Source: Liolophura sinensis
Lineage: Eukaryota > Mollusca > Polyplacophora > Chitonida > Chitonidae
DNA length: 64,000 nt
Assembly: GCF_032854445.1 (NCBI RefSeq)
Contig: NC_088304.1
Span: 5,206,001-5,270,000, forward strand
Reading direction: 5' to 3'
In this document: positions 3,482-47,300 of the stretch, one piece after another
Position numbering within the stretch: position 1 is the stretch's first letter
Layout of the letters: every line of letters begins with the position of its first letter
Translations under genes and position numbers: made by a program
Notes under the pieces: generated by a model
Told to the model about the DNA's origin: nothing
What the model saw: only the letters and a program-made list of their open reading frames with translations
Databases searched by the model: none

Positions 3482-6400
3482 TTTATTTCATTTTTTAGAT
3501 TTTTCATGTTATGCCTCCCACTGTTTTTTTTTTTTTTCTCGCAGAAAAAATTATCTGCTTTTGAACAGTCTTGTTGTGGCTGTGAGTCTCTCATATTCGA
3601 CAAGTGACCTAAGCAGAGTTTTTGTTGTTATTTCAGCATAGCCTGTGCGTCTAACCTGCGTGCTCGTGTGCGCGGCTTCGTGTACGGCTTCGCGGGGCTG
3701 ATGATCCCACTCCTCCTCCTCCTTACCTACCTCATCAGCACCTCCCACAAAGTCCTCAGGCCCCTCCTCGGACAGAATCTCGTGGACACCCTCGGCATTT
3801 ATCTGGTGATTTAACATTGTCACACACCGGCCCTCTAAACTCATGAATCAACAGTGATAACTATACTAGTGACTACAGTAACAATACCAGTGTCTGTGAA
3901 TGAAGTTATTCTGGCTGATGTTAGATGCTATGTGCTTGGGCAGGTGTTTGGAAGGTAGAATGATAGCCTACTGGGAAAATATAAATTTTAGCACTAGAAG
4001 TAATATCTGATAACATTTATTTGCCTCCAGAAATGCCTTTTTTGTGGTCGAAAATTTAGGTCATTTAGGGTAGGTAGAAAGCATCTTTGCTCTGTGTGGC
4101 ACAAGATTTGTTTCCCTTGGTAGAGGACTGCTATTTTACCATTGAAATTCAAAGAGCTGCATGTGATGATGAAACCATCTTAAAGTCTTAAGCACAAAGT
4201 GAAGATCTTGATACCTTCTGTACCTGCCTATGAAGGCCATGATATAAGACCTCTTAATCTTCATTTTGTCATTATGAATTCTAAATAAATTGTTAGATCT
4301 ACATTTGTATAAAAAACACTTTGTCTGGAACTCAGGCCTAATTTTTATTCAAAGTTTGTTCACATCAATCAAGAATTAAAGTACAGTTGCAAAGTGACAT
4401 CTTCTGAGATAACTTCCATCCAAGATAGACGGCCATTCAGGCATGTTACAGTGCATTCAGTCTATAAGTTCTGAGATAACATCCATCCAAGATAGATGAC
4501 CATTTAGGCATGTTACAGTGCATTCAGTCTATAAGTTATGAGATAACATCCATCCAAGATAGACGGCCATTCAGGCATGTTACAGTGCATTCAGTCTATA
4601 AGTTCTGACATAACATCCATCCAAGATAGACGGCCATTTAGGCATGTTACAGTGCATTCAGTCTATAAGTTCTGAGATGACTTCCATCCAAGATAACATC
4701 CATCCAAGATAGACGGCCATTCAGGCATGTTACAGTGCATTCAGTCTATAAGTTCTGACATAACATCCATCCAAGATAGACAGCCATTTAGGTATGTTAC
4801 AGTGCATTCAGTCTATAAGTTCTGAGATAACATCCATCCTAGATAGACGGCCATTCAGGCATATTACAGTGCATTCAGTCCATTTACCTTGCCATCCATT
4901 CATACTCAAAGTAAAGCTGAATATCAAAATTTTAAAAAGATAAGTAAATCTGCCTCCTTATTTTCCAAAATTCTTGCCTGCCCGACAATTTGAAAATGGT
5001 TGGATACCATGACCTTACTAAGTTTGTTGTGTTTGTGTTTTGACACCAGGGTCCGCTGAGCCGAGCCTGGCGAGCCATCCCGCCCGACTACAGCACACAC
5101 GTCCTCGGAGGCTTCCTCGTGTTCGCCCTCATCCTCCTGCTCCTGGCCAAGTTCTGCTCAAGGTGAATCCTCTCTTCAGTTTTACTTCACTGAGGTTTTC
5201 CCGTCACCTGTAAAATTCTCAGAGTTTTGACAATGTCTTAAGGCCAGAAGAATTGTTAGATACTTGGGTAAAGTGCAGTAGTTTTCCTTTCCGGTTTCCT
5301 CCACCTAGAGATCTGACCAGTCAATTTAGTGAGCGAGTAATGCTGTAATGAAATAAAATTAAATAAATCAGTTCACAAGCTTTATAGAGATAATGCTTGG
5401 AAGTCTTTGGGTTTAAAAAGAAATCTAGAATGTCAGGAAAATTTCTGTTAAAGAATGTAGGGAATGTTGGCTGGGCGTTCTTTCTGTATTGTTTTAGCGT
5501 ATTTTTGGTCTGCATATCCATCGTGTTCATACCAAAAATGTAAATCCCTGGACGTCAGATTTGTTCACCCAGCTCGCAGTACTAGGTGTACAGTTTACTG
5601 GTGATTGTCACATGATAGGGAGATTGTGCTTTGATTATTTCTCCCAGGGTGTTACCTTCTTTTCCTGTTCAGTGTTTAGTGATTGGATGTCTGAAATGAT
5701 GAGTCACATGACACTGCCCCAGTCTGAAAGCTGTGACTGAGAGGTGTTTATCTCTGATTGACAGGTAAATTAGAGTAATACCAGAGAAAATAAATTTTGC
5801 CCCTTCATGGCAATCAACCTCAGGAGTAACCAGTATCTCCTTGCATGGTGCTCTCCCTTAGTCAATGCATTATCTCTGTAAGGAGCTTGAGTGTACAATA
5901 CTCTTTTCTTAAAGTATTTGAATCCTTGAAGAAAATGGAAATTTAGTGTCTAATTTCAATCATTGTGAGTTATGATATTTTATCAACCAATCAATGGTGT
6001 TATGTTACTAGTTGTGAGGTTTTATCAAGCAGTCAGTGCTGTTTTTGTTAAGAGTCATGACATTTTATCAGCAAGTTCTGTCACAAGTCATGATATTTTA
6101 TCACAAGTGATGTTTTATGAACTGGTCAGTGCAGTTTTGTTGTGATGTCATGATGTCCTTTGATGCGGTCAGTGCCATTTTGTTACAAATTGTTGCTTTA
6201 TCAACTGGTCAGTGCTGTTTCGTTGCACGTCCTGATGTTTTATCAACTGGTCAGTGCTGTTTTGTTGCCAGTCCTGATGTTTTATCATATGGTCAGTGCT
6301 GTTTTGTTGCACGTCCTGATGTTTTAACAAATGGTCAGTACTGTTTTGTTACAAATTACAACATTTTCTCAGCCAGCCAATGCTGTTTTGTTGCACGTCC

Positions 6401-8506
6401 TGATGTTTTATCAACTGGTCAGTGCTGTTTTGTTGCACGTCCTGATGTTTTATCATCTGGTCAGTACTGTTTCGTTGCACGTCCTGATGTTTTATCAACT
6501 GGTCAGTGCTGTTTCGTTGCATGTCCTGATGTTTTATCAACTGATCAGTGCTGTTTTGTTGCACGTCCTGATGTTTTATCAACTGGTCAGTGCTGTTTTG
6601 TTGCACATCCTGATGTTTTATCATATGGTCAGTGATGTTTTGTTGCACGTCCTGATGTTTTATCATATGGTCAGTGCTGTTTCATTGCACGTCCTGATGT
6701 TTTATCAACTGGTCAGTACTGTTTTGTTGCACGTCCTGATGTTTTATCATATGGTCAGTACTGTTTTGTTGCACGTCCTGATGTTTTATCAACTGGTCAG
6801 TACTGTTTTGTTGCACGTTCTGATGTTTTATCAACTGGTCAGTGCTGTTTTGTTGCAAGTCCTGATGTTTTATCATATGGTCAGTGCTGTTTTGTTGCAC
6901 GTCCTGATGTTTTATCATATGGTCAGTACTGTTTTGTTACAAATTACAACACTTTCTCAGCCAGCCAGTGCTGTTTTGTTGTCAGTCATGATGTTTTATC
7001 ATATGGTCAGTACTGTTTTGTTACAAATTACAACATTTTCTCAGCCAGCCAGTGCTGTTTTGTTGTCAGTCATGATGTTTTATTATATGGTCAGTACTGT
7101 TTTGTTACAAATTACATTTTCTCAGCCAGCCAGTGCTGTTTTGTTGTCAGTCATGATGTTTTATCATATGATCAGTACTGTTTTGTTACAAATTACAACA
7201 TTTTCTCAGCCAGCCAGTGCTGTTTTGTTGTCAGTCATGATGTTTTATCATATGATCAGTACTGTTTTGTTACAAATTACAACATTTTCTCAGCCAGCCA
7301 GTGCTGTTTTGTTGTCAGTCATGATGTTTTATCATATGGTCAGTACTGTTTTGTTACAAATTACAACATTTTCTCAGCCAGCCAGTGCTGTTTTGTTGTC
7401 AGTCATGATGTTTTATCATATGATCAGTACTGTTTTGTTACAAATTACAACATTTTCTCAGCCAGCCAGTGTTGTTTTTGTTGTCAGTCATGATGTTTTA
7501 TCATATGATCAGTACTGTTTTGTTACAAATTACAACATTTTCTCAGCCAGCCAGTGCTGTTTTGTTGTCAGTCATGATGTTTTATCATATGGTCAGTACT
7601 GTTTTGTTACAAATTACAACACTTTCTCAGCCAGCCAGTGCTGTTTTGTTGTCAGTCATGATGTTTTATTATATGGTCAGTACTGTTTCGTTACAAATTA
7701 CAACACTTTCTCAGCCAGCCAGTGCTGTTTTGTTGTCAGTCATGATGTTTTATCATATGGTCAGTACTGTTTTGTTACAAATTACAACACTTTCTCAGCC
7801 AGCCAGTGCTGTTTTGTTGTCAGTCATGATGGTGTTTAAGCCAGCAGTGCAGTTTTTTTTATTACATGTGATTTATCAGCCCACAATACTGTTTTGTTAC
7901 AGAACCCAGGTGACCTTGTCAAGAAAGCAGAAGCGAACTTTGAATGAAATCCGGGATCATGTGGCCAATACAGTCAAGAGGAAGAAGGTGAGGCTGTTTC
8001 TAGTGTCTTTACATCTGCATACATCTACATCTATCAGCATAATTTGTTTTGACCATAAATTTTGACTTCACCATTAAAACATTTTCGTGAAGGTCTGGTC
8101 TAAAAGAGTAAAATTATTACAGAATTTTGTGAACGTGATCTAAGAATGGAAAAAAGGCTTCATTAAATCTCAGCAGCAAGTGTGAAATGTTAGTGAAACT
8201 GTTTGGACTTAAGATGGTGATCCAGTGTCTAGACTTCCACAACAGTAGACCCAAACGAAATTCCCATCAGCCTGATCTGATATTTCTCTGGTAATTTTTC
8301 GTGTTTCATAAAGGTGTTTCATGTTTTCGTGAATGTTTCTCACTTCCTCCTAAATGTTTTATAGTTTTCCATGAATTTTGGATACTATACACAAATGGGA
8401 AATATGAATGACCCATGGAACCTCACACAAGCTATTTTTTCTTTTTTCACAGGAAACCCTGTACCAAGAGTATCTCCAACAGAGCGTGGCAGACCATGAC
8501 CTTTGA
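1..8506 (+). CDS. Dynamin-superfamily (EHD/sarcalumenin-like) membrane GTPase, C-terminal part
   Basis: Eight exons join in one frame with GT-AG junctions: 1-119, 1260-1420, 2186-2287, 2870-3012, 3637-3805, 5050-5162, 7903-7987 and 8453-8506 (TGA at 8504). They give 314 residues; the 5' end, including the P-loop, is outside the window. Seen: a DTPG switch-II (G3) motif in the first exon, then ADLIFVFFDP, then LSKADE as the G4 (N/T-K-x-D-like) motif in the second exon. A helical stretch follows in exon 4. Two hydrophobic segments follow, one in exon 5 (GFAGLMIPLLLLLTYLI) and one in exon 6 (GFLVFALILLLLAKF), then a basic tail rich in Lys and Arg. The layout DTPG, DLIFVFFD, xKAD matches EHD proteins and sarcalumenin, which bind and remodel membranes. 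The twin membrane anchor suggests an integral membrane protein with the GTPase on one face. I cannot assign an orthologue name; G4 has Ser where EHD has Asn. The gene call is strong, the precise function is not. Confidence 0.85.
222..729. repeat. 53-bp minisatellite, about 9.6 copies (GTPase gene intron)
   Basis: Near-identical 53-bp units run head to tail in the intron between the first two exons of the window. Each contains GGTTTGAGCTAAAC and GAGCTGGATTCAAAC. Variants differ at a few sites (CATGTGG/CAGGTAG, CCTCTGTG/CATCTGAG), which would allow copy-by-copy alignment. Confidence 0.95.
3431..3480. repeat. (TA)n microsatellite
   Basis: About 24 uninterrupted TA units lie in the intron upstream of the first-TM exon. 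They produce Ile-Tyr reading frames on both strands that are not genes. Confidence 0.98.
3637..3805 (+). CDS. GTPase gene exon with first transmembrane segment
   Basis: The acceptor AG ends at 3636 and the donor GT starts at 3806. The exon completes an AGC codon split across the previous intron. It encodes an Arg-rich stretch, then about 20 hydrophobic residues including a run of five leucines, then a hydrophilic loop. The next exon (5050-5162) carries the second hydrophobic segment, so the two could form a hairpin or a two-pass anchor. Confidence 0.8.
4403..4880. repeat. 67-bp minisatellite, about 7 copies (GTPase gene intron)
   Basis: Units of about 67 bp contain ATCCATCCAAGATAGACGGC and TTACAGTGCATTCAGTC. 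One copy near 4674-4700 holds an internal 26-bp partial duplication. The array ends about 170 bp before the acceptor of the exon at 5050. Confidence 0.93.
5960..7836. repeat. 42-bp minisatellite with 84-bp higher-order section (GTPase gene intron)
   Basis: Roughly 44 units of 42 bp fill the intron before the exon at 7903. The first part (to about 6930) is simple 42-bp units with TGATGTTTTATCAACTGGTC. From about 6930 to 7830 two diverged units alternate as an 84-bp higher-order repeat, one unit carrying TTACAAATTACAACATTTTC. The edges before 6115 are degenerate. Because 42 is a multiple of three, frames stay open for hundreds of codons on both strands. No start context or non-repeat protein sequence supports translation. 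Confidence 0.95.
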
Positions 8507-23300: not shown

Positions 23301-26300
23301 AAAGAGAGTATAGAAATATAGAGAGTAAAACCAGAGCAGCGACAACAGTGTGATAGGCGATAATTCGTCGCATGTAACTGGCAAGATGCACTCTCTTGTC
23401 GCATGTAACTGGCAAGATGCACTCTCTTGTCGCATGTAACTGGCAAGATGCACTCTCTTGTCAGCTTATGTAAATGCTTCATTAGTAGAAAATTACACAT
23501 CCCCTAGCACCATTAAACAGAATTGGGTAAAAAAAATATATGCATTGATGCTAATTGCAGTTTATTGCATGTCACTGGTCTAGAATTACTTAAAACGCTG
23601 TATTGTCATCACATTTAATATACATTTTATACACATTAAAACAATGCAAAGGGGCAAGGCCCTGGGGATGCAGGAATACTAGGTAACAGGTGACATCAAT
23701 AAATAATTCAAATGAGGCCGATACAGTGTATAGTTATGATGTCTGCACATTTCACAGAGAAGTGTCCTACCAGATTAGGTACGAGGGAAACGTCACGGAT
23801 GACACACGGATAAAACTCATGACGGACGGTGTCTTGCTGAAGGAGGTTCAGAAAGTGAGTACTTTTATTTATTTAGTTATTTATTTAGTTATTTAGTTAT
23901 CTGCTTGGTGCCTTATGTCATGCTGAAAAATATTTCACTTATACGGGGGAAGCATTGTGGTGGAAGGAAACAGGGCAGAGCCCAGGGGAAACCCTCGACC
24001 ATCCATGGGCTGCTTACAAACCTTCCCACATACAGCCAGAGAAGTCAGCTTGCACAATGACACAGGAGCCTCTTACCAATGCGGTAGCTGTGAGTTCAAG
24101 CCCAGTTCATGCTGGTTTCCTTTCATGTCTTATGTAGGACATGCCAGCAACCTGCAGATGGCCATGGGTTTCGCTTAGACTCTTCCTGATTTCCTCCCAC
24201 CGTAATTCTGGCCACCATCAAATAAGTGAACTATCCTTGACTATGGCTTCGAACACCAATAAAATAAATAAATAACTTTACTTGTACATGTGTTTATCTT
24301 TGGTGTGTTAGCTCTGGAAGTGTTCATTTGATAACCAGTTCTCTAGGATGATTCCTAAATCCTCAACTTAAATTTTTTGTTCACTCTCCTGTTCCCAGAG
24401 GCCATATTGCTGAAGGGGCTGAGTGTGTTCCATTCATTTCCATTCTGGTGGGTTTTTCCTTTCTTACAGGACTTTCTGCTGACCAAATACTCTGTCATAA
24501 TTATAGACGAGGCTCACGAGAGAAGCGTCTACACAGATATTCTCATTGGTCTGTTATCTAGGATTGTCCCTCTAAGGCACAAGGTAAATACAGAGACATT
24601 CTCATTGGTCATTTATCTTGGATTGTCACTCTAAGGCACAAGGTAAGTACACAGACATTCTCATTGGTCTGTTATCTTGGATTGTCCCTCTAAGACATTC
24701 TCATTGGTCTGTTATCTCAGATTGTCCCTCTAAGACATTCTCATTGGTCTGTTATCTTGGATTGTCCCTCTAAGACATTCTCATTGGTCTGTTATCTTGG
24801 ATTGTCCCTCTAAGACATTCTCATTGGTCTGTTATCTTGGATTGTCCCTCTAAGGCACAAGGTAAATACACAGAGATTCTTATTGATCTGTTTTTTGGAT
24901 TGTCCCTCATATCTATGCTTTTGTATAGCATAGCATTCATATACCATCTGTCAACCAAGATGGACGCTCCAGGTCAATAATTGCAAGGGCAATGGTTTTG
25001 GACAAAATTCCCACAATCTACAAAACAACTAAGAAAGGATATAAGGTTTGAAAATAGAACCGAATCATGCAAAGAGAAGCAGTCAAAAGTTTTCAGTGAT
25101 GTTGGAAGGACGAAAAATAAATGTATGTTCTAGGAGACTGGGTCAAATCAGTATTCAAATTGTTTGTAAGGTGACTTTAAGGACATTAGTCTGTTATCTC
25201 TGATTATTCCTTTAAGACACACTGTAATCATAAGTTCACATTCCTAGTAGTCTGTTATCTTGAACTGTCTCTCTTTGACACAGGATAAAGCTCACTAGGG
25301 ACTTCACAAAATTCACAAGGGCTAGTTTTTGTCAACTGGCCAAGTTTGTTGGACGCCTCATGTATTGTTGTAGTTATGCATTTTCGTCCATCTCTGATGC
25401 CATTTGTCTGTCTGCTACCAAAAATTATGTGAAATTCATGTATCTTTGTAAAAAGTGGGTGAACTTTGCTCACTTTATCAGCATTTGTGGTTTCATACCA
25501 ATACTTACATAATTTACCAATGGTTCCTATGTGTACAGTTCAATAGTGTTCATATTTCATATCTGGACACTTTCGAATTTTCCGGGCTTTACGTATCTGT
25601 ACAATTGGACATTGTTCATGGTTTCATCCCTGTACTGTTCGTTAGTGTTCATAGTTTCATCCCTGTACAGCTCATCAGTGTTTATGGTTTCATCCCTATA
25701 CAGTTCATCAGTGTTCGTGAATGTTCATGGTCCATTCATGTATAGTTCACCATTGTTAATGGTTTCATCCCTACACAATTCATCTGTGTTCGTGAATGTT
25801 CATGGTCCATTCATGTATAGTTCACCATTGTTCCTGGTTTCATCCTGGTACAGTTCATCAGTGTTCATGGTTTCATCTCTGTACAGTTCATCAATGTTCA
25901 TTTTTTCATGCCCGCGCAGTTCATCGGTGTTCATGGTTTCATGCCTGTACAGTTCATTAATATTTATGGTTTCATCCCTGTGCAGTTCATCATTGTTCAT
26001 GAATGTTCATGGTTTCATCTCTATACAGTTCATCATTGTTCGTGGTTTCATACTTGTACACTTTATGATCAGTGTTCGTGGTTTCATACCTGTACACTTT
26101 ATGATCAGTGTTCGTGGTTTCATACTTGTACACTTTATGATCAGTGTTCGTGGTTTCATACTTGTACACTTTATGATCAGTGTTCTTGGTTTCATACTTG
26201 TACACTGTATGATCAATGTTCGTGGTTTCATACCTGTACACTTTATGATCAGTGTTCGTGGTTTCATACTTGTACACTTTATGATCATTGTTCGTGGTTT

Positions 26301-29300
26301 CATACTTGTACACTTTATGATCAGTGTTCGTGGTTTCATACTTGTACACTTTATGATCATTGTTCGTGGTTTCATACCTGTACACTTTATGATCATTGTT
26401 CGTGGTTTCATACTTGTACACTTTATGATCATTGTTCGTGGTTTCATACCTGTACACTTTATGATCAGTGTTCGTGGTTTCATACCTGTACACTTTATGA
26501 TCAGTGTTTGTGGTTTCATACCTGTACACTTTATGATCAGTGTTCGTGGTTTCATACCTGTACACTTTATGATCAGTGTTCGTGGTTTCATACCTGTACA
26601 CTTTATGATCAGTGTTCGTGGTTTCATACCTGTACACTTTATGATCAGTGTTCGTGGTTTCATACCTGCATAGGTCATCAGTGTTCATCAGTATGTTTTT
26701 TTGTTTTCCATAGAAGGGCAAGCCTCTGAAGCTGATCATCATGTCTGCCACCCTGAGGGTGGAGGATTTCACTGAGAACAAGCGTCTGTTTAAGCTCACC
26801 CCGCCTGTCATACAGGTAAGTCACCAGGAGGGTGGAGGATGGGTGAAATCCATCTACCTGACACAGTGACGTTTCCCATGGCTCTGCTGGGTTTAAACAA
26901 ATTATCCTGTCGTAAGTAATCTGAATTGACATTTAGAATGTTGCAATCTATAATCCTGACAAAGATGTCAACAACAAAGTGTACAAAGTCATTCTAATCA
27001 AAACCAATGACCCATGAATGGTCGTGGGTTTCCCTCAGGCTCATGCTCTTTGTCTCTGGCTGTACGTGGGAAGGGTTTTCAACAACCTGGGGATGTTCGT
27101 GGGTTTCCCTCAGACTCATGCTCTTTGTCTCTGGCTGTACGTGGGAAGGTTTTCCAGCAACCTGCGGATGTTCGTGGGTTTCCCTCAGACTCATGCTCTT
27201 TGTCTCTGGCTGAACGTGGGAAGGTTTTTCAACAAGCTGCGGATGTTCGTGGGTTTCCCTCAGGCTCATGCTCTTTGTCTCTGGCTGTACGTGGGAAGGT
27301 TTTCCAACAACCTGCGGATGTTCGTGGGTTTCCCTCAGACTCATGCTCTTTGTCTCTGGCTGTACGTGGGAAGGGTTTCCAACAACCTGCGGATGTTCGT
27401 GGGTTTCCCTCAGACTCATGCTCTTTGTCTCTGGCTGTACGTGGGAAGGTTTTTCAACAAGCTGCGGATGTTCGTGGGTTTCCCTCAGGCTCATGCTCTT
27501 TGTCTCTGGCTGTACGTGGGAAGGTTTTTCAACAACCTGCGAATAATCGTGGGTTTCCCTCAGACTCATGCTCTTTGTCTCTGGCTGTACGTGGGAAGGT
27601 TTTTCAACAAGCTGCAAATAATCATGGGTTTCCCCCGGGCTCATGCTGACTTTCTCTCTGGCCGTTCAAAAGGCCTGCCAGCAACCTGAGGATGATCATG
27701 GGTTTGCCTCGGTCTCTGCCAGGTTTTCTCACACCATGAGGTTAACTGCTGTCGTATAAGTGAAATATTCTTGAATACAGCGTAATACACCAATCTAATA
27801 AATAAATAAATCTTTGCAATCAATATGACACTCATGAGAAAAATGTTGCTATTTGTATGTCATTTGTTCTGTATTTACAGGTAGATTCCAGACAGTTTCC
27901 AGTGACAATTCATTTCAACAAAAGAACTCCTGAGGACGACTATTTGGCAGAAACATACAGAAAGGTTTGTCTGCTGTTTTCTTGTTTGTCTTATTTGTTT
28001 TGTGCATGCGTAAATAAAAAAAAAAGAAATATCATTTTACTCTAATTCTTCAACCTTTTTATCCTCGTGTGTGATCAGATCTTTGAAACATTCTGAGAGA
28101 ACTATTGGGTGCAGAGAACTATCTGTGTACCTTTTTAGTTACACTATAAAATCATTTTGGTGTCATTTTGATAATAACTATGCATAAAGTCCATTGAAGA
28201 AAAGCGCTTCATAGGTCATAAAATTTAAATATGATGTTTCCTGAAGCTACCTTTTCCTCAACTGATTAATTCTTACTCTTCCTACCGTTGACCTTTCAAC
28301 TTTGACCTCTACAGGTGTGTAAGATCCATCGCATGTTGCCAGATGGAGGAATTCTGGTCTTTGTCACGGGTCAACAGGAAGTACACACACTCTGTAAGAA
28401 ACTGCGAAACGCTTTTCCATGGCAACAGAAATCAACATTAAGTAGCAGTGTTTCAAAAGGTAATCTACACTGACAAGTAATTTGAAATTTAAATTAGCTC
28501 TGTAGAAAAATTACATAGGGGTACCAGACCTGCTTACTTGTATGATTTTGGCGTATTTTTACACCAAACAGGTAGAAAATACGACTGTAGGCCAAAGAAA
28601 GTATAAAATACGCTTAGACACCATACAATGAAGAAAATAAAATCTGAAGTCTGATTTCGTTATTTATTTTTATACAAGTCCGTTTTTAGTATCAGATCCA
28701 CTATTTTAGCATTTACACTACAGCGAGTATTTCGCAGGAAACTCTCAACTTGCTCATTAATATAGCTTGAATGTAGTCTTTTTATGTCAACCCTTGTCGT
28801 TGAGCACACTTTTCCCGGCAAAATGGCTGGCGATTAAATGCCTGATGGTGCCCGAAAAAAGCGGATGTAAAATCACAAAGTCATTTACAGGGAGAAATTC
28901 TTGAACAAGCATCCATTAATTTTCAGAATTACACCGTCACAACTGGAAAATCCACATGATCACATGATCAGTACAGGTCCTCGCTGTACAACAGTTGTCA
29001 GACTCAGTGAATTCAAGATTGCTCCTGTCATGAATATTTTACAGTATCCATTCACGTGACATTTGTTCAAATCTGCAATTTTTTTTTAAAAGTGCATTAA
29101 ATCGTCAAAAAAAGCTTGATCACAGAAAATATAGAGAACATATCAAAGATTGTACACCAGCTAAAACTGCTAAATCCTTAATAACCTCATTATCTTAAAG
29201 TAGAACATGCAGAATTGTCTTCTTAATGACCCAAACTAACACACCAATCGTGTTTTGTTTCCGTCTGGGGCACCTTAGTCCCTTTTTTGGAAATTCTTTT

Positions 29301-35300: not shown

Positions 35301-38300
35301 ATTTTCCTATGTGGTTCTGCCCCTTTAACTTCGTCGTAAAGCCTTGAATGTGTGTTAGAAGTAAAGGAAGCTGTGTTTCACTTGTACCGAGCTCAACAAA
35401 CAAACAAACAATAATCATTCTTTCATTTTATCAGAAAAACTCAGCTGTTGGCATCATAAGTATCAATTTAAGAGCTTTATGTGCTTCAGAAAATGCATTT
35501 TGTCAAACTTTAGGTAAAATACAGTAATTATGTCATCGCTATCATTAAATTACAACAGGAGGAAACTGTAAAAAATAAATGTTTTATTCCAGGTAAATGT
35601 TAATTAATCATGATGGATTTTGGTAATAAATTAATAGAAACCTCAGAATATACCCTTTCACTCACAAAAGTTTGTGATGAAAAGTAACTTTTATGCATTG
35701 TATTTCCTGCAGGCAGCTGAACAGTTACTGATATCATTAGGAGCTTTGGAACAACCTGTGAAACCAAAACGCTTTAAAGATTTACAGAAAGGTGAGATTT
35801 CATGACATTTATGTAATAATATATGTGATTCATGTCTTACGGGTAAAGAATATCAACTTTCTGTTGTTTCACATGCACATGTATTTCACTTATCATTTTT
35901 ACCTACGGTAAGCAGTCTTTGACATCATGTCTGGTTGTGGGTTTGCCCCCATCCCATCAACACCCCCCCCTCCCCGGCTTTGTCCGCTTTACTCCCACCA
36001 TAGTGCTGGCCACTGTTGCATAAGTGAAATATTCTTGAGTGGGGTGTAAAACACCAATCAAATAGATAAATAAGTAAATCAACATTATGTCTTGTGATAT
36101 TGGTCTGAGGGCAAGTCAGTCAACATTGAAATTGAGCAGGATAACACGGCCATTGGGATTTGGGTTTGTTAGCTTTTTGAATAAAGTTGTAAGTATAAAT
36201 TTTGTGATGGTTTGATACCTTTACATGGCATGACCTGGATAGTCACAATCACAATTAGAATGTAATGAGAGATATTAAAGGATACATGAAAAGGAACTAT
36301 AAAATAAAGATAATGTTTCTATTCCAAATGAAAAAAATTTATGCCCCGGAATTTTTGCTGAAAGAATTTCATTTTTTGAGTATTTTTATACCTGTTAATT
36401 ACCATATTATGCATATTTTCTGTCAAAGGTCATATTTTTTCAAAAATTGTGTCATCATTGATCTTGCTTGGAACTCGATGAACACTCACAAAGTGCCCGA
36501 AGCCCAGTGAACCGTGTCACTACAGTGTGGGCAATGTGACACGTACACAGATACTACATGGCTTCTTATGGGCCAGCTTAGCGTCCCATCAGTGCCCCTA
36601 CACCCGCCCGATTCAATCTGTCCCCTACACCCCTGCCCCCATTCGGCCAGACCCCACTCGGTCTGTCCCCGACAGAGTTCTATTTAACTAGGGATTATCC
36701 TCGACATCACCCGTGTAAGGTACTTAATTTCCGGACTGACCGCTGGGACTTTAAGAAAACTGTACTTTGAAGCTCACTTAGTGAAAGTTGAAAAATGTGT
36801 TTGTACTGTTGTATGTTATTACACCTGATATTCTACACATTGATAAATAAAACCAAAGTGTTTCATGTGTCCTTTCAGATGAATTCATATTGTGTGAAAG
36901 ACTGATTGATTGTGCCAATGATGTAAACATCATTAACATGTCATCCTGATCAGATANNNNNNNNNNNNNNNNNNNNNNNNNNNNNNNNNNNNNNNNNNNN
37001 NNNNNNNNNNNNNNNNNNNNNNNNNNNNNNNNNNNNNNNNNNNNNNNNNNNNNNNNNNNNNNNNNNNNNNNNNNNNNNNNNNNNNNNNNNNNNNNNNNNN
37101 NNNNNNNNNNNNNNNNNNNNNNNNNNNNNNNNNNNNNNNNNNNNNNNNNNNNNNNNGATAAACATTTGATTTTTGATTTTTTTTTTTTGATTGGTGTTTT
37201 ACGCCGTACTCAAGAATATTTCACTTATACGACGGCGGCCAGCATTATGGTGGGTGGAAACCGGGCAGAGCCCGGAGGAAACCCACGACCATCCGCAGGT
37301 TGCTGACAGACCTTCTCACGTACGGCCGGAGAGGAAGCCAGCATGAGCTGGACTTGAACTCACAGCGACCGCATTGGTGAGAGACTCCTGGGTCATTACG
37401 CTGCGCTAGCGCTTTAACCGACTGAGCCACGGAGGCCCCGATAAACATTTGCCAGAAAATAGCCCAATTTAATGGTTTCAATTTAGTCTCCTCCCACATG
37501 TATTCATCATGTTAATTATATTTTCTGTTTTAGGGCTCATTTAACTAAAGAGTTATTCTTTACCCAGCCAATCAGCCGATGACGAGTAAGGCCTTGTACA
37601 GATGACAACTTTATGTCACTGTGTTTTTGAATCAGGAGGTTACCGAGTACATTGTGAATATTGGCTGTTCACATGTGCTTTTGGCACGCTGAAGTTTCTT
37701 TCCTACAATAGACCTGCCTGTTATTTAAATATAAATTTCTTAAATTTGGTGTAAAGCACTAATCAAACAATGAAATACTTTCTTTTTTTTTTTGTTTTAG
37801 ATTTTAGCACAAAGATTACTCCCCTTGGTCGAGTTATGGCGAGTTTCCCGGTTTCTCCACGATATGCAAAAATGTTGGCACTGGGCCATCAGCATGACCT
37901 GTTGCCATATGTGGTTGCCATAGTAGCAGCACTCTCTGTGCAGGAGATGTTCCAAGAAATAGAGAAGCCCGCTGCTATGGAGAATGCTGTAAGTTGTGAA
38001 TCTGGTTCTTAGCTTCAATATTGAGTTGTTAAAATTCATCACTACTATTTAAGTTGCTCTATTGGTCAGTTGGTCTGATTTTTGACATTCTACCTTGTAT
38101 GACTGGCCAGATGGCCAAATTATTTTTCATTATATTTTCTAACATCCATGAATCAAGGGGCTTCCTGTGGGACATCACATCCATTGCAAATTCGCAGTAC
38201 GCGTATTGTAAAATGTGCTCTATTTTCTGTTGAGGAACCTCGGAATGAAATCGAATTGTTATATGTTCACAGAAAGAAGAACAAAGACAGCGTCGTGTGC

Positions 38301-41300
38301 GGATGTACCAGATCAGACGTACATGGGCAGGCACTGTAAGAGTGTTGTTACCATGGCAACAAAAATCATATTGAGCAAATATTTGTGATATCTGTTTGAA
38401 ATCGATTTTTGGCGACAGAATAATTCCTCAAAGCTTGTCTTAAGCATGTTGTATTGTGAGAAAATAATACATGTAACTCTACTTTGATGAGCTTTGATAA
38501 CTAACATAAGAAGTGAACTTATGAGACAATCTCTTAACATGCTAGCTAGACCACTAGCTGTGTTCAGCCCGAGGTGCTTTCTCTGACGTCTGCTGTAACT
38601 GGATCAGCACTTCAAGCCAGCGCTAAAAAAGTGAAGCATAAATCCAGTGACAGCCCAGTGCCTAGATCAGCCCCAGTGGTATTTAGATTTGTTTGCAGTT
38701 GTTGCAGAATTGAGCATGAATCCTGTTGCAATTATGTAAACATTTAATTGGAGTCAAAATCACCAGCACAACCTCTCTGAGGCCGTGACCTGAAACTCGA
38801 ATACCCCGGCCATGAACCTGCAGCTAGGCTATTGAAACAGGGTTCAAACAGGCTTGAGTTCCTTGTAAATGATTCAGTAGGCCTGGTGTATCAACAGTTC
38901 AAGCAGCAGAAGAAATGTTCTAACAATATATCCAATTTCCAAAAAAATTATGTTTATCACTTTGGCCTTTCATCGTCGAAGCCCAACTTTTATCTGTCAT
39001 AGGCTACTGCTTAGACTATTATACAGAAAATACCTTGCATGTTAGAGAACTGGAGTAAATGCCCTCAATAATGGAGATGGTGCTGAAACTGTGTCAAGGC
39101 AAAGTTTCACAAAATATTTATTGGGTTAAAAAAAATCTAAAAAAAATATTTAATGCCGGTTTAGATACTTCTAATGGTAGTCTTTCAGTGGATATAGACA
39201 ATAGTCAGGTGCTGAATTTCACTTTAAAAGGGTTCCATTGATCTTAGAAAGGTGTTTTGAGGTTTGTTTGGGAAGTAGGATTATGTACTACTGAAAAAAA
39301 ATTCAGCAACGTAAGTAAGTTTTTATGGTCTTTATTTAACCTCAAAACAGTGCGGTGTTGAGAGGGGTAGATCCAGGGTCAATCCTGGGTCAGGTCACAC
39401 CTAAGACGTTACAAAAAAAGAGGAAGTTGTAACTTCCTCGCTTGGCGTTCAGCATTAAGGGGATAGTGCAACAACTAGTTGACCCGTTTCAGTATAATGG
39501 CTTGGGTGGTGCGGCTTACTTGCCTTCGGTAAGGCATCTCAGTGAAGCAGCACTAGATGAAAGAGCGGTGGAAATCCGTCCTGTAACAAGGAAGCACATT
39601 ACATACACTCCAAGGACTCCTTCGTCATCTTATGACGGAATAATTGTTAGATATGACTTTATACCCCAAGCACTCACTCACTTACTTACTCATAATGATG
39701 CATTACATATTTTCAGGCCTGGTTCAGTTTGTAAGCCAGAGGAACTCATCTCTCCTTGTAAAGGCTTTTCACCATCCTTGTGTGGAAACGACTATTCTCA
39801 ACCTACCTAATTACCCTTGTCATGTTAGACAAAACCTAATTACCCCAATTCCTTTTTGCATATGAAAGAGCAACTTTCGTCCTGCAACAAGGAGGAGCTG
39901 TTTAAAGTGGAACGTGTGTAGCCTCTGTAAGTTTCCGCATCTTTTCTCTGTTTCTCAGGGCCACTCGTTTTTGCTAGGTGACCTGATGGTGATGCTGAAG
40001 GCTGTGGGGGCGTGTGAGTACGAGGGCTGTTCCCCGGATTTCTGCGCTCACCACGGCGTTCGCTATAAGGCCATGAAGGAAATACGCAAACTACGTGCAC
40101 AGCTCACTAATACAGGTTTGAACAAGAACGTAGTGTCATTTGCTTGTCTTTTCTGACAGAGACAAATTTAAGTTTCTCCATGAGACAAAGAGCTCGTCAA
40201 TGTATAGATGGTGGTTTGACCGTTCACATGTGTGTGACTGGGCAGAATGATCAGTTTTGAAAAAAAATAAAAAAATAAAAATTGGTGTTGAAAAATTGGC
40301 AGATGATAGGATCTGGGCCATGATAATGTGCTATGTAAACATTTTTGCAAAATTTGCTGCTTGATTTTAAAAACTGCTTTTTTTTCTTTTCTGTTTACAG
40401 TGAACCTAGTCATTCCTGACACCTCCCTATGCCTTGATCCTAAGTTATCTCCCCCTAATGACTTACAGGCCAAGCTGTTACGACAGATTGTATTGGCTGG
40501 GATGGCAGACCATGTAGCAAGGTGAGAGATAACTTACTTATTCAGCCTGTACAAGTAGGGCATAAAAGGGTTAAAATTCAATTTAAATTTCAGTCAATTT
40601 TGATGATATCAGTCTGAACAAATTAGTCAATCTGCACAAATAGGGCATAGACAAGCTGAAATTAAATTCAAATTTCGGTAAATTTTAGTAATATTGAATG
40701 AATAAGCCAGTTAAATTCAAATTTCACTAAATTGTAATGATGTCAGTCTGAATGCAGAGGTTTGTTTTGTCGGAAAATTTTGAGAGGGTTTATGGAACGT
40801 TTTAAATATGCATTTGTGTGAACTTGGACTCCTACAAGTACCCTAACCCCTGAGCTGTGTGTGTTGTAGGAGGTGTGCAGACCCACCCCCTGGGGCTGAT
40901 GAGGAGGCTAAAAAATGTAGACATGCGTACCAGGTGAGATAAGGCTGACACAGTGCACTAGGTGCACCTGCTAGTGTGTGTCAGAGTGAAAGTCTGGTAT
41001 TAAAAGAATTGCAATAAAACTTGGTTAAATGATATATTCTGATTTTAAACTTTTCATTTCCCAAATTTGTTCATTTAGGAGCAAATTTTTTTTTCCTCTG
41101 TGCAGGGAACCAGCAACCTGCAGATGGTCGTGTGTTTCCCTCAGGCTCTGCCCGGTTTCCACCCACCATAATGCTGGCCGCTGTCTTATAAGTGAAATAT
41201 TCTTGAGTGCGGCGTAAAACACCAATCAAATAAATAAGTAAATAAATTCTCTCAGTGAACAGAGCTTGAGGAGCCTGTATTTATCCACCCTACCTCGTGC

Positions 41301-44300
41301 TTAGACATTTGCTGTGAAATACATGTTGTTTTGTGTTTTTTTTCTCAGTGCACAGAGCTTGAGGAGCCTGTATTTATCCACCCTACCTCGTGCTTACACA
41401 TTTGCTGTGAAATATGTGTTGTTTTGTTGTTTTTTTCTCAGTGCACAGAGCTTGAGGAGCCTGTATTTATCCACCCTACCTCGTGCTTACGCATTTGCTT
41501 TGAAATATGTGTTGTTTTGTGGTTTTCTGTCAGTGCACAGAGCTTGAGGAGCCTGTATTTATCCACCCTACCTCGTGCTTACGCATTTGCTTTGAAATAT
41601 GTGTTGTTTTGTTGTTTTTTTTCTCAGTGAACAGAGCTTGAGGAGCCTGTATTTATCCACCCTATCTCGTTCTTACACATTTGCTTTGAAATATGTGTTG
41701 TTTTGTGGTTTTTCTCTCGGTGCACAGAGCTTGAGGAGCCTGTATTTATCCACCCTACCTTGTGCTTACACATTTGCTTTGAAATACGTGTTGTTTTGTG
41801 GTTTTTTTCTCTGTGAACAGAGCTTGAGGAGCCTGTATTTATCCACTCTACCTTGTGCTTACACATTTGCTGTGAAATATGTGTTGTTTTGTGGTTTTTT
41901 CTCTTAGTGAACAGAGCTTGAGGAGCCTGTATTTATCCACCCTACCTTGTGCTTACACATTTGCTGTGAAATATGTGTTGTTTTGTTGTTTTTTTTCTCA
42001 GTGAACAGAGCTTGAGGAGCCTGTATTTATCCACCCTATCTCGTTCTTACACATTTGCTTTGAAATATGTGTTGTTTTGTGGTTTTTCTCTCGGTGCACA
42101 GAGCTTGAGGAGCCTGTATTTATCCACCCTACCTTGTGCTTACACATTTGCTTTGAAATACGTGTTGTTTTGTGGTTTTTTCTCTCAGTGCACAGAGCTT
42201 GAGGAGCCTGTAATTATCCACCCTACCTTGTGCTTACACATTTGCTGTGAAATATGTGTTGTTTTGTGTTTTTTTCTCTCAGTGCACAGAGCTTGAGGAG
42301 CCTGTATTTATCCACCCTACCTCGTGCTTACACATTTGCTGTCAATAAATGTTGTTTTGTGTTTTTTTTCTCAGTGCACAGAGCTTGAGGAGCCTGTAAT
42401 TATCCACCCTACCTTGTGCTTACACATTTGCTGTGAAATATGTGTTGTTTTGTGTTTTTTTCTCTCAGTGCACAGAGCTTGAGGAGCCTGTATTTATCCA
42501 CCCTACCTCGTGCTTACACATTTGCTGTCAATAAATGTTGTTTTGTGTTTTTTTTCTCAGTGCACAGAGCTCTTGAGGAGCCTGTATTTATCTACCCTAC
42601 CTCGTACTTAAACATTTGCTGTGAAATATGTGTTGTTTTGTGTTTTTTTTCTCAGTGCACAGAGCTTGAGGAGCCTGTATTTATCCACCCTACCTCGTGC
42701 TTACACATTTGCTGTGAAATATGTGTTGTTTTGTGTTTTTTTCTCAGTGCACAGAGCTTGAGGAGCCTGTATTTATCCACCCTACCTCGTGCTTACACAT
42801 TTGCTGTGAAATATGTGTTGTTTTGTGTTTTTTTCTCAGTGCACAGAGCTTGAGGAGCCTGTATTTATCCACCCTACCTCGTGCTTACACATTTGCTGTG
42901 AAATATGTGTTGTTTTGTGTTTTTTTCTCTCAGTGAACAGAGCTTGAGGAGCCTGTATTTATCCACCCTACCTCGTGCTTACACATTTGCTGTGAAATAT
43001 GTGTTGTTTTGTGGTTTTTTCTCAGTGCACAGAGCTTGAGGAGCCTGTATTTATCCACCCTACCTCGTGCTTACACATTTGCTGTGAAATATGTGTTGTT
43101 TTGTGGTTTTTTTCTCAGTGCACAGAGCTTGAGGAGCCTGTATTTATCCACCCTACCTCGTGCTTACACATTTGCTGTGAAATATGTGTTGTTTTGTGTT
43201 TTTTTTCTCAGTGAACAGAGCTTGAGGAGCCTGTATTTATCCACCCTACCTCGTGCTTACACATTTGCTGTGAAATATGTGTTGTTTTGTGGTTTTTTCT
43301 CAGTGCACAGAGCTTGAGGAGCCTGTATTTATCCACCCTACCTCGTGCTTACACATTTACTGTGAAATATGTGTTGTTTTGTGGTTTTTTTCTCAGTGCA
43401 CAGAGCTTGAGGAGCCTGTATTTATCCACCCTACCTCGTGCTTACATATTTGCTGTGAAATGTGTGTTGTTTTGTGGTTTTTTCTCTCAGTGAACAGAGC
43501 TTGAGGAGCCTGTATTTATCCACCCTACCTCGTGCTTACACATTTGCTGTGAAATATGTGTTGTTTTGTGTGTTTTTTTCTCAGTGCACAGAGCTTGAGG
43601 AGCCTGTATTTATCCACCCTACCTCGTGCTTACACATTTGCTGTGAAATATGTGTTGTTTTGTGTTTTTTCTCTCAGTGAACAGAGCTTGAGGAGCCTGT
43701 ATTTATCCACCCTACCTCGTGCTTACACATTTGCTGTGAAATATGTGTTGTTTTGTGTTTTTTTTCTCAGTGCACAGAGCTTGAGGAGCCTGTATTTATC
43801 CACCCTACCTTGTGCTTACACATTTGCTGTGAAATATGTGTTGTTTTGTGTTTTTTTTCTCAGTGCACAGAGCTTGAGGAGCCTGTATTTATCCACCCTA
43901 CCTCGGTTCTGTACAAGCAGAATGCAGAGTTTGTTGTGTACCAGTACATCCACGAGACGTCCAAACTTTACATGAAAGGTATTCATCTGGTATTTTAAAT
44001 GTGAGCTATAGATAAGTCTGAGGAAGAAAAATCAATTGTATATCAAATTCAAATTAAATTGTAAAAATGGTGGCAAAATAATTTTGTAAATAGAATTTGA
44101 ATTAATATGTTAAAATAGTGCACAGGACAAAATGCTTTGTAAATGAAAATTTAAATTAAATTGTGAAAATAGACAGGACAAATCAATTTTACATTAAATT
44201 AATATTTAAATTAGAAGTAGAAATTCATTAAGTTAATGTTGTTGATTTTTTTTTGTAAAAATATTTGACATTTATTGGAGATTTGTACAATAAATATTTT

Positions 44301-47300
44301 TGACCAATTTTGGAGGTTTTAAGGTTTGCCGACCTTTGTAAAGGTTTAGTATTCTTCTGCATCCTTTAAGTCTCATCAACATTATCAATTTTGAAAGTGA
44401 AAATTTCGTTATGCATTCCTAGGGGTGACAGCCATTGAAGATCATTGGCTGCCGATATTTGCTCCATCTCACTGTACATATTCTAAGCCAATGGATGAGC
44501 CTCTACCCAGATATGACCCAGTCAAAGACCAGGTGGTGTGTCATATGACCTCTACATATGGTAAGTATAATGTACAGAATGTGCAATGCTGACGCGGACC
44601 CACGTGGGAATGATCAGTGTTCTCTTTTAATACAAATTATCATTACAGAATTTATGCTAAGCCCGTGTTGCGTCTGGTAAACAGACCCATGCCCCCTGAA
44701 AAGCTACAGAAAATTCCCCATCAGACTTATAAAAATGTGAAGTAAAGAAAAGTCTTTTCAATCGCCAGTGGAATGTTTGAATCGATATGTTGTCGGTAAT
44801 AAATAGTTAAAGCACCAAAGAAACCAATCTACACACTCGCCAAACTTTTGTGTATAAGCTGCATCAACAACGAGTCCTCTACATGCATCTAGTCAAACTT
44901 TCGATTTTTTATACCCATGTGTCAGATCTCTATGACATAATAACACGGGGATAGTGCATGTAGCACTAATGGCCCAGTGTGCTCCAGCATAATAGCTAGA
45001 ATGCATAGGCCCATAGTGACCCAAAGTCCGACCTAAGTATGGTCTCCTTGACTGACCCCTCCGTACATCATTAATTTTGGGAAAATGCCTTTAAAAGTGA
45101 CAAGAAATCAACATTTCATGTGCGAGATGATCTACCCTGACAAGTCAGAAAGGTCAGTCTTGAACTTTTGCCCAAGACATGTTAGTTTTGTCATGTATTT
45201 TCGTTTCGCCGTCTTGCTCATGGGAAGGCTCTAGTACAGGACGAGAATTTTACTACGGACATTGGGAGTAACACCTTATCAAAAGACCCAAAATTGAAGG
45301 GGGAATACTAGTTCAAAAATCCGGTGAAAGCTTGGCTCATATTTACTGATACGCAAAGACCCCTTCCATCCTTTGCTACGACGAAGTGTACACTGGATTA
45401 TGACATTGTATCTGTATTGGCAATGCTCTCTGCATGTGCAGTAGTTAATATCCAAATCCTTTTTATACATGGTCTGTCCTCAAGCTGAGACATTTATGCA
45501 CCTTTTGCAACCATTGACATTGACCTTTATTTGATATTTCCTCAGAAAATCTGTCGAATTCGAAAATTAGGTCTGCTTTGAGCTACTCACCACATGATGC
45601 CGTCTACCCGATTGACCAAAATTGGTACATCAATCATGTTGATGCCTGTTGAGAAACTGACATCATGTAAAAATATATCACATTTATCAAGTATTCCAAT
45701 TTATAGAACAGCTCAGCACTCAAAGATGTTGTGTTGACAATTGATTGTTGAGTGAAGTAGAAGTATGAAGTGCCAGATGCTTTTAAGATAAGAAATTGAC
45801 GCTGTGACAACGATTTTTTTTCACCAGTCGTCAACCAGATCTTAATTAAATGTGGTTTAACAGTGTGGCGTGCGAAAGCAATAGCTGCTTATGTTTAATT
45901 AAGATTAATTAATGGATTGCACAGTTGTTGAAAACTGTTTATCTTCCAACAGTATTTCTTTATGTTAAATAATGCACAAACTTGTCAGAGTTCTGTGGTT
46001 TACCAGTTCCATTCACTCATAAAATTGACCAGTCCACCACTGTACAATACAAAAGTCCTTGATTATGTGACTTAAACACAATTAAGTAAATAATACATCA
46101 TCCATTGGTCTCAGAATTACGTTCGGAGTTTCCTGTATGTATATCTATATTAGGGGCAAAATTCCTATGTTTCTGCTATATTTTTCTGGAAAGCCTCCTA
46201 TATTTTCTCCTGTATATTTCCTAAGAGAGGCACTCTGAGGGCTGACATCATGATTTCCGGAATATCATGTGACTGTTTCTCAACCAATGGAAACTAAGAA
46301 TCAGTCCATGAGGTATAATAATTTAGCCCAAATTCCGTCAGGTGCAACTTGGAGACCTGCAGTGGCTCATTATAAAATTTAATATGTCTCATATTTACTA
46401 TACATTATTGGCTGACAGACAGTAAAAATATCATTATCTCTTAACTGCAATATAAGACAGAGCTTTTGTGATGGGGTGGGGTGTTGTCTTTATTTTTGGT
46501 GTCTGGTATATTCCGGAAGGCTGCACCATAAAGATGACAGCAACTATCAGGCAACAAAGATACTCTTATTTGATATATACATTTTACTGAAATACTTTTT
46601 GTCAACAAGATCTTTGAAACTCGTATCAGAACCTTGTGATTATTGTTTTTTTCAGGACGTTGTTGTTGGGCAGTCTCGGCCACAGAGTTGGAATATCCAC
46701 AAGGTCTTGATCGCTTTAAGTGGTTTGCACGGGCTTTGTTAGAAGGGGAGGTAATCCATGAACTCAAGCAGTTTGTTCCATGTTTGCTGTCTGTACCTGC
46801 GACAATGATCAAACCTTGGGCCAAGTAAGTTGAGACAACAGTGATATTTTAAGTCTGTTTTGATTTCCATTATATTACAAATGAAACATACAGGTTAAAA
46901 GTCCTACTGTACCATGTTATCAGTCAGAACTATTTTTAATTGCTGTAATTCTTCAATATTTTCAACATGTTTGCAAAGTGTTGATTTAAGCATATTCTGA
47001 AGACATTAGTCTCTGTAGACTGATAAAATTATAGCTTTTGTGATGCCCTGAAATTTGCCAATCCAATCAGTGTAGTTTTGTCTCCAAAATTTACAAATTA
47101 AATTACAAATGTGCATGAAGCACTGAAAGTCGCTGTTTTATATGAGAAAAGGTTGAGAAATTAGGGTTACACATACTATACTATGGGTGTCTGAAGAAGG
47201 TTTCACCAGAAATCATTTAGAGTAGATGAGTGAGGAAGAAAATTTAAGAGCTGAGCATTTGTAAACTTAAGAAGTTCCAGACTGACAGAAGTGTCATTTG

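What the first reader, a model, noticed from the sequence alone, without database searches (positions are those of the whole stretch)
41251..43978. Splice-acceptor array: about 28 tandem copies of an acceptor plus the first 42 nt of DHX37 exon 25
Each roughly 93-bp unit has its own pyrimidine tract, AG and exon start, so the spliceosome faces about 29 near-identical 3' splice sites. Only the last leads into the rest of exon 25. Seen directly. The inference is that an ancestral duplication across the intron-exon border expanded into the intron. Use of the penultimate acceptor (exon start 43771) would add exactly 31 residues in frame, with no stop, so minor in-frame isoforms are possible.
Basis: partly seen in the sequence, partly recalled or inferred. 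Interest (0 to 1): 0.78.

Follow-up and report, generated by a model that had tools for sequence, protein, structure and literature searches.

The report
Tandem splice-site array in chiton gene
A chiton gene carries 28 extra copies of the start of one exon, most with an intact copy of the splice signal, and the same kind of repeat turned up at about one in ten other exons checked in this genome, so the animal's splicing machinery probably has to ignore many near-identical decoy sites.

Summary
The array is real. TRF gives 41250-43905, period 93, 28.5 copies, 94% match. There are 28 upstream copies plus the true DHX37 exon at 43864-43978; 26 of 29 keep the acceptor AG and 26 of 29 a candidate branch point. 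It is the only one: the other 27 upstream copies lead to a stop, 9 as first codon. The unit was found at no other place in the genome. The genome matches the Liolophura sinensis assembly.

The array belongs to a described class, "mirage" minisatellites spanning intron-exon borders, known from lancelets, where splicing is reported to stay normal. What is new is scale. DHX37 carries a second such array, at a donor (24535-24908). In a survey, 5 of 60 kinase loci and 8 of 78 CCT/myosin exon matches had border-spanning arrays. Arrays meet exon ends less often than random points (9 against 20.3 of 156), so they look tolerated, not targeted. I infer that the exon-proximal site is used and the rest are passengers.

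The parts
40401..40521 (+). DHX37 exon two before the array exon
   Evidence: (matches 6o16_A residues 716-757), joined frame
40870..40933 (+). exon directly upstream of the array intron; donor GTGAGA at 40934
   Evidence: found by eye from splice signals and frame; no homology match of its own; joined frame reads ...[20 protein letters not shown]...
41100..41249 (+). SINE-like remnant (approximate ends) with (AAATAA)n tail abutting the 5' edge of the array; the first unit is cut in its pyrimidine tract
   Evidence: sequence; SINE identity is recalled, not tested
41250..43905 (+). 93-bp border-spanning (mirage) minisatellite, 28.5 copies
41256..43863 (+). 28 upstream copies of acceptor plus first 42 nt of the exon; AG lost at 41721, 41814, 42095; 9 copies start with TGA
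43771..43863 (+). last upstream copy: the only decoy that stays in frame (+31 residues)
43815..43819 (+). candidate branch point CTTAC (A at 43818, 46 nt upstream of the exon start); present in 26 of 29 units (not u1, u2, u16), and in those 26 no AG lies between it and the acceptor
   Evidence: yUnAy consensus recalled, branching not tested
44423..44560 (+). next DHX37 exon
24470..24583 (+). DHX37 DEAH-motif exon, donor GTAAAT at 24584
24535..24908 (+). second border array in the same gene: copies of the exon's 3' end, three with the donor GT (24584, 24643, 24862) and four 40-bp copies without it, plus a more diverged copy at 24867-24908

Best explanation
This is a mirage-type minisatellite. 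A tandem duplication of about 93 bp (51 bp of intron end, holding candidate branch point, T tract and AG, plus 42 bp of exon start) arose across the 3' splice site of a DHX37 exon and grew to 28 extra copies by unequal exchange or slippage. Every extra copy lies on the intron side, so splicing can remove it. The spliceosome is predicted to pair the copy nearest the exon body (43864) with donor 43979: the array holds almost no donor-like GT, so only the last few acceptors can form a normal-sized internal exon (115, 208, 301 nt). Occasional use of other acceptors gives nonsense transcripts, or at 43771 a 31-residue insertion. The array is mostly a tolerated passenger of a genome rich in minisatellites. 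Shown: anatomy, frames, uniqueness at the search's sensitivity, recurrence. Inferred: splice choice, near-neutrality, route of expansion.
For: Array and 29 copies. All 28 genome matches of the unit lie here. Candidate branch point in 26 of 29 units, with no AG between it and the acceptor in those 26. 23 of 29 array acceptors score 10.6-13.1, against a median of 7.5 for 17 other acceptors of the gene. Of 247 GTs in the array one scores 4.8 and the rest 1.6 or less; the gene's 15 own donors score 3.0-10.9 and the exon's donor 8.0. All 6 variant sites in the exon part are missense or nonsense, none synonymous, so the copies do not look coding (small numbers). Identical units (u6=u10, u12=u14, u17=u18, u20=u23) point to local duplication. 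Border-spanning arrays at 13 of 138 surveyed loci or matches and at a DHX37 donor. Lancelet mirages are reported not to give aberrant mRNAs (passages), and in human F7 37-bp donor repeats only the most upstream, exon-proximal donor is normally used (passage).
Against: No RNA data were available, so use of 43864 is not shown. 25 of 28 decoys keep AG, most with strong tracts; expected if young, but it would also fit maintained decoys. One GT in the array (4.8) scores above the weakest of the gene's own donors (3.0). The review on F7 credits oriented scanning, not exon definition. In older duplicated-acceptor experiments (recalled, not looked up) the intron-proximal 3' site could win, which would make this arrangement costly. 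The exon part varies less than the intron spacer (6 of 42 against 11 of 37 variable columns), not significantly (p 0.11).
Confidence: 0.82

Rival explanations
1. The array is a regulatory decoy: part of the transcripts splice to upstream acceptors, meet stops and are destroyed, so copy number tunes DHX37 output.
For: Of 25 AG-bearing decoys, 24 lead to a stop at least 301 nt before the exon donor and 8 start with TGA; most decoys score about as high as the true site.
Against: Stops are expected in unconstrained copies; arrays of the same kind sit in unrelated genes; lancelet mirages are reported without aberrant mRNA.
Confidence: 0.1
2. The penultimate acceptor (43771) makes a real second isoform with 31 added residues in the OB-fold region.
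For: In frame, no stop, exon of 208 nt, acceptor score equal to the true one.
Against: The insert [31 protein letters not shown] is exon start plus translated intron and would fall inside the stretch matching Pfam OB_NTP_bind (residues 27-116 of the joined peptide); the copy next upstream starts with TGA, so openness is not kept across the array.
Confidence: 0.04
3. Assembly artefact: a smaller array was over-expanded.
For: Tandem arrays are prone to misassembly; there is a 200-N gap at 36957-37156 in the same gene.
Against: Units differ from each other along the array. The matching assembly was made from HiFi reads averaging 8,347 bp, longer than the 2.66-kb array. Copy number may still be off by a few.
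Confidence: 0.03

Closest known systems
Mirage minisatellites of lancelets (Adh3, TnC, globins BflGb6/BflGb9, PGBD5)
   Same: Tandem repeats spanning an intron-exon border, at 5' or 3' borders, units of tens to about 160 bp, many copies with intact AG/GT (passages).
   Different: Different phylum (chiton, Mollusca); 28 extra copies here against 6 and 3 repeat units in the two BflGb6 haplotypes; found in several of the genes sampled here; transcripts not checked.
Human F7 intron 7 37-bp donor repeats
   Same: Tandem copies of a splice site, exon-proximal one normally used (one passage of a review, PMC6627357).
   Different: Donor, not acceptor; one human locus; the review credits oriented scanning.
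Human IFI6 (G1P3/6-16) minisatellite with multiple splice donors
   Same: Minisatellite at a splice site (title seen in reference lists only).
   Different: Donor side; its paper was not held.
NAGNAG and other tandem acceptors
   Same: Competing 3' splice sites (recalled).
   Different: Spacing here is 92-95 nt, with a separate candidate branch point and tract in most copies.

Membership tests
Mirage minisatellite | tandem repeats spanning an intron-exon border and its splice signal | tested here: met
Mirage minisatellite | one authentic copy continuous with the rest of the exon | tested here: met
   only 43864 leads into the DHX37 exon
Mirage minisatellite | many copies keep AG/GT | tested here: met
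   26 of 29 AG
Mirage minisatellite | regular splicing unaffected | not testable with these tools
   no RNA reads
Mirage minisatellite | length instability between alleles or cells | not testable with these tools
   one assembly only
Mirage minisatellite | concerted evolution inside the cluster, with edge copies left out | tested here: inconclusive
   four pairs of identical internal units; units of the 5' half mostly diverge more from the true copy, but the true 3' copy is only 1-2 changes from many inner units
Recursive-splicing ratchet site | AG directly followed by a donor (AG|GTRAGT, recalled) | tested here: not met
   AG is followed by TGCACAG or TGAACAG; array GTs score poorly
Mirage-derived new exon (intron gain) | a donor inside the unit so that a copy can act as an exon | tested here: not met
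   247 GTs: one, in a single unit, at 4.8; the rest 1.6 or less

The most novel reading that the evidence does not exclude
Border-spanning minisatellites are pervasive in this chiton: about one exon in ten carries an array of splice-site copies (13 of 138 loci or matches here). As a rough extrapolation from this small sample, with about 28,000 genes of several exons each, that is of the order of ten thousand arrays. Splice-site choice in this lineage must then strongly favour the exon-proximal copy, or a steady share of transcripts is lost to decoys, with copy number as a heritable dial. To my knowledge no such genome-wide load has been described outside lancelets.
Probability: 0.65. Interest if true: 0.78.

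Novelty: new member of a known kind. Interest (0 to 1): 0.6.

Why it matters
Duplicated splice sites are a classic test of how the spliceosome picks among equals, mostly studied in engineered genes (recalled). A genome with many natural arrays of 2 to about 50 similar donors or acceptors, with RNA-seq from five tissues, makes the test possible at scale: which copy is used as a function of distance, strength and copy number. It also bears on the proposal that mirages seed new introns, and it is a trap for gene prediction and for short-read mapping at exon edges.

Tried and rejected
Coding role of the copies: rejected; six of six exon-part variants are missense or nonsense, and 27 of 28 upstream reading paths hit stops. 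Cassette exon or recursive splicing: rejected for lack of donors. Dispersed satellite: rejected; the unit matches only this locus (that search skips very common words and scores only the best candidates). Border-targeted process: not supported; 9 of 156 ends of exon matches lie within 12 nt of an array against 20.3 expected for random points, 1 of 2000 simulations as low. In that call the ends are those of HMM matches, not mapped borders; I trimmed one match (L075, C8:53412069-53412482) to start at 53412279 because it ran across an intron; TRF was restricted to periods of 10 or more; some fetched stretches overlap each other. Upstream flank as older array units: weak (24 against shuffled mean 16.4, 4 of 300 shuffles as high), not claimed.

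Errors of mine superseded: one search used an exon end one base too long (corrected); crashed; one search included one misplaced acceptor at 38699 in the acceptor score table (redone without it; the branch-point part is unaffected); the third donor was set one base late and its reading is not used.

Survey selection: 60 loci chosen by me from the 138 Pkinase matches (mostly partial-profile ones; a few loci hold two matches), and 78 exon matches, out of 131, that fell in the 20 stretches I could fetch. L054, L057 and L066 had arrays within 60 nt of a match; I printed L054 and L057, did not print L066, and counted none of the three. The 13 were judged by eye on the printed sequence.

Print searches for such arrays: open-licence PMC only, ranked listings seen only in part (20 of 39 papers; 20 of 214; 15 of 1,742). 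The listings showed no report of mirages in molluscs; that is not proof of absence. The chiton genomics paper PMC12005716 has no hit for tandem repeat, minisatellite or satellite in its main text.

Full report
Observation. The array is present as described. TRF reports 41250-43905, period 93, 28.5 copies, 94% matches. Listing every copy of the exon start gives 29: 28 upstream (41256 to 43771) and the true one at 43864. AG is intact in 26 of 29 and lost at 41721, 41814 and 42095. The exon 43864-43978 matches human DHX37 residues 960-994, and six searches of the region place further DHX37 exons on the + strand between about 21.4 and 44.6 kb. The exon before the array is taken as 40870-40933: it has no homology match of its own, but it has AG and GT at its ends and with it the frame reads ...[23 protein letters not shown].... 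The array intron then runs 40934-43863.

Source. The window lies in G000:C10:5206001-5270000, a genome of 609,464,459 bases in 632 contigs. Six contig lengths (96,433,062; 60,359,117; 58,388,612; 37,343,639; 25,057,479; 19,479,325) equal figures seen in passages of PMC11068029, the chiton assembly published as Liolophura japonica (632 scaffolds, 609,495,693 bases) and corrected to L. sinensis (PMC12441733, whole text). One seen there differs slightly (82,489,547 here, 82,493,220 there), as does the total, so the copy here is probably a trimmed version. The assembly was built from HiFi reads averaging 8,347 bp at 14x, so reads longer than the 2.66-kb array should exist.

Anatomy. Each unit is about 51 nt of intron plus 42 nt of exon. 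CTTAC, a fit to the recalled branch-point consensus, lies 45-47 nt before the exon start in 26 of 29 units (not u1, u2, u16), with no AG in between. With AG lost in u6, u7 and u10, 23 of 29 units have both. Of the 29 array acceptors, 23 score 10.6-13.1 on a table made from 17 other acceptors of the gene, whose own leave-one-out scores run 0.8-11.2; two of 1325 other AGs score as high as the true site. Of 247 GTs in the array, one scores 4.8 and the rest 1.6 or less, against 3.0-10.9 for the gene's 15 own donors.

Frames. Of 28 upstream copies, only 43771 stays open (+31 residues); the other 27 meet a stop, 9 of them in the first codon (TGC to TGA), all at least 301 nt before the exon donor. 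The three AG-less copies are among these 27. The insertion would fall within the stretch that matches Pfam OB_NTP_bind.

History. Distances between units show identical pairs (u6=u10, u12=u14, u17=u18, u20=u23), u5-u6 close to u9-u10 (2 and 0 changes), and mostly greater divergence from the true copy in the 5' half. That fits local duplication with the 3' part youngest or most homogenised. The exon part carries six variant sites, all missense or nonsense. A SINE-like remnant ends at about the array's 5' edge (identity recalled).

Same gene, other side. The DEAH-motif exon (24470-24583) is followed by further copies of its 3' end to 24908; three copies (the true one included) carry a GT donor, the second (GTAAGT) closer to the recalled consensus than the true one (GTAAAT). 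Use of the second donor shifts frame into a stop. All 8 genome matches of this exon lie here.

Same genome, other genes. As a background check I took 60 kinase loci and 78 CCT/myosin exon matches. Arrays spanning an exon border occurred in 5 of 60 (L024, L027 acceptor; L038, L045, L060 donor) and 8 of 78 (L075 two donor and one acceptor, L070 donor, L088 two donors, L081 donor, L086 acceptor): 13 of 138, 9 donor and 4 acceptor. Copies often keep the signal: 48 of 51 AG in L086, 11 of 11 GT in the first L075 case, 8 of 8 and 17 of 17 in the two L088 cases, 7 of 7 AG in L027 (counts include the true site, found by fuzzy matching). It is not always as good: in the second L088 case only 2 of 17 sites equal the true one, most having C at the third intron base, and L038 and the second L075 case have one copy each without GT. 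Two of the 13 (L060, second L075 case) are short or diverged. Arrays cover 16.6% of the non-exon sequence and 2.3% of exon matches in the CCT/myosin stretches; ends of exon matches are hit less often than random points (9 against 20.3 of 156). So nothing needs to aim at borders: my reading is that arrays arise widely, are removed from exons, and are partly tolerated at borders, because copies on the intron side can be spliced out.

Known relatives. Tandem duplications of intron-exon borders are known in lancelets as mirages (PMC3087553 passages; PMC3902484 passage). Those passages say that both borders can be hit, many copies keep splice signals, lengths vary, and regular splicing is not disturbed as far as tested. 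Human F7 has 37-bp donor repeats of which normally only the most upstream is used, credited there to oriented scanning (PMC6627357 passage). The DHX37 array meets the sequence features of a mirage; splicing accuracy and instability could not be tested.

Mechanism. I commit to a passenger array with splicing to 43864, by exon definition: with hardly any donor-like site inside the array, only acceptors within a few hundred nt of donor 43979 can define an internal exon. This step is inference from general splicing knowledge and the F7 and lancelet precedents, not shown here. The chief rival is unproductive splicing that lowers DHX37 output.

Novelty. The array itself is a new member of a known kind. 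The apparent prevalence in a mollusc is what would surprise a specialist; my print searches covered open-licence papers only and I saw ranked listings, in part cut short.

Noticed in passing
24535-24908: Donor-side border array on the DHX37 DEAH-motif exon: a second mirage in the same gene.
   Followed up: yes
L024, L027, L038, L045, L060, L070, L075, L081, L086, L088: Border-spanning minisatellites in kinase, CCT and myosin genes of the same genome; L086 has about 43 TRF copies of a 32-bp acceptor unit.
   Followed up: partly
41100-41249: SINE-like sequence (CGGCGTAAAACACCAATCAAATAAATAA tail) ends at about where the array begins and the first unit is truncated there; the flank before it resembles the unit's T tract and AG (possible target-site duplication; weak).
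   Followed up: partly
27018-27662: 75-bp array whose unit by eye resembles part of the SINE-like element at 41100-41249.
   Followed up: no
6108-7831: 84/42-bp minisatellite of about 1.7 kb with long open frames, upstream of the DHX37 exons found.
   Followed up: no
36957-37156: 200-N assembly gap inside a DHX37 intron.
   Followed up: no
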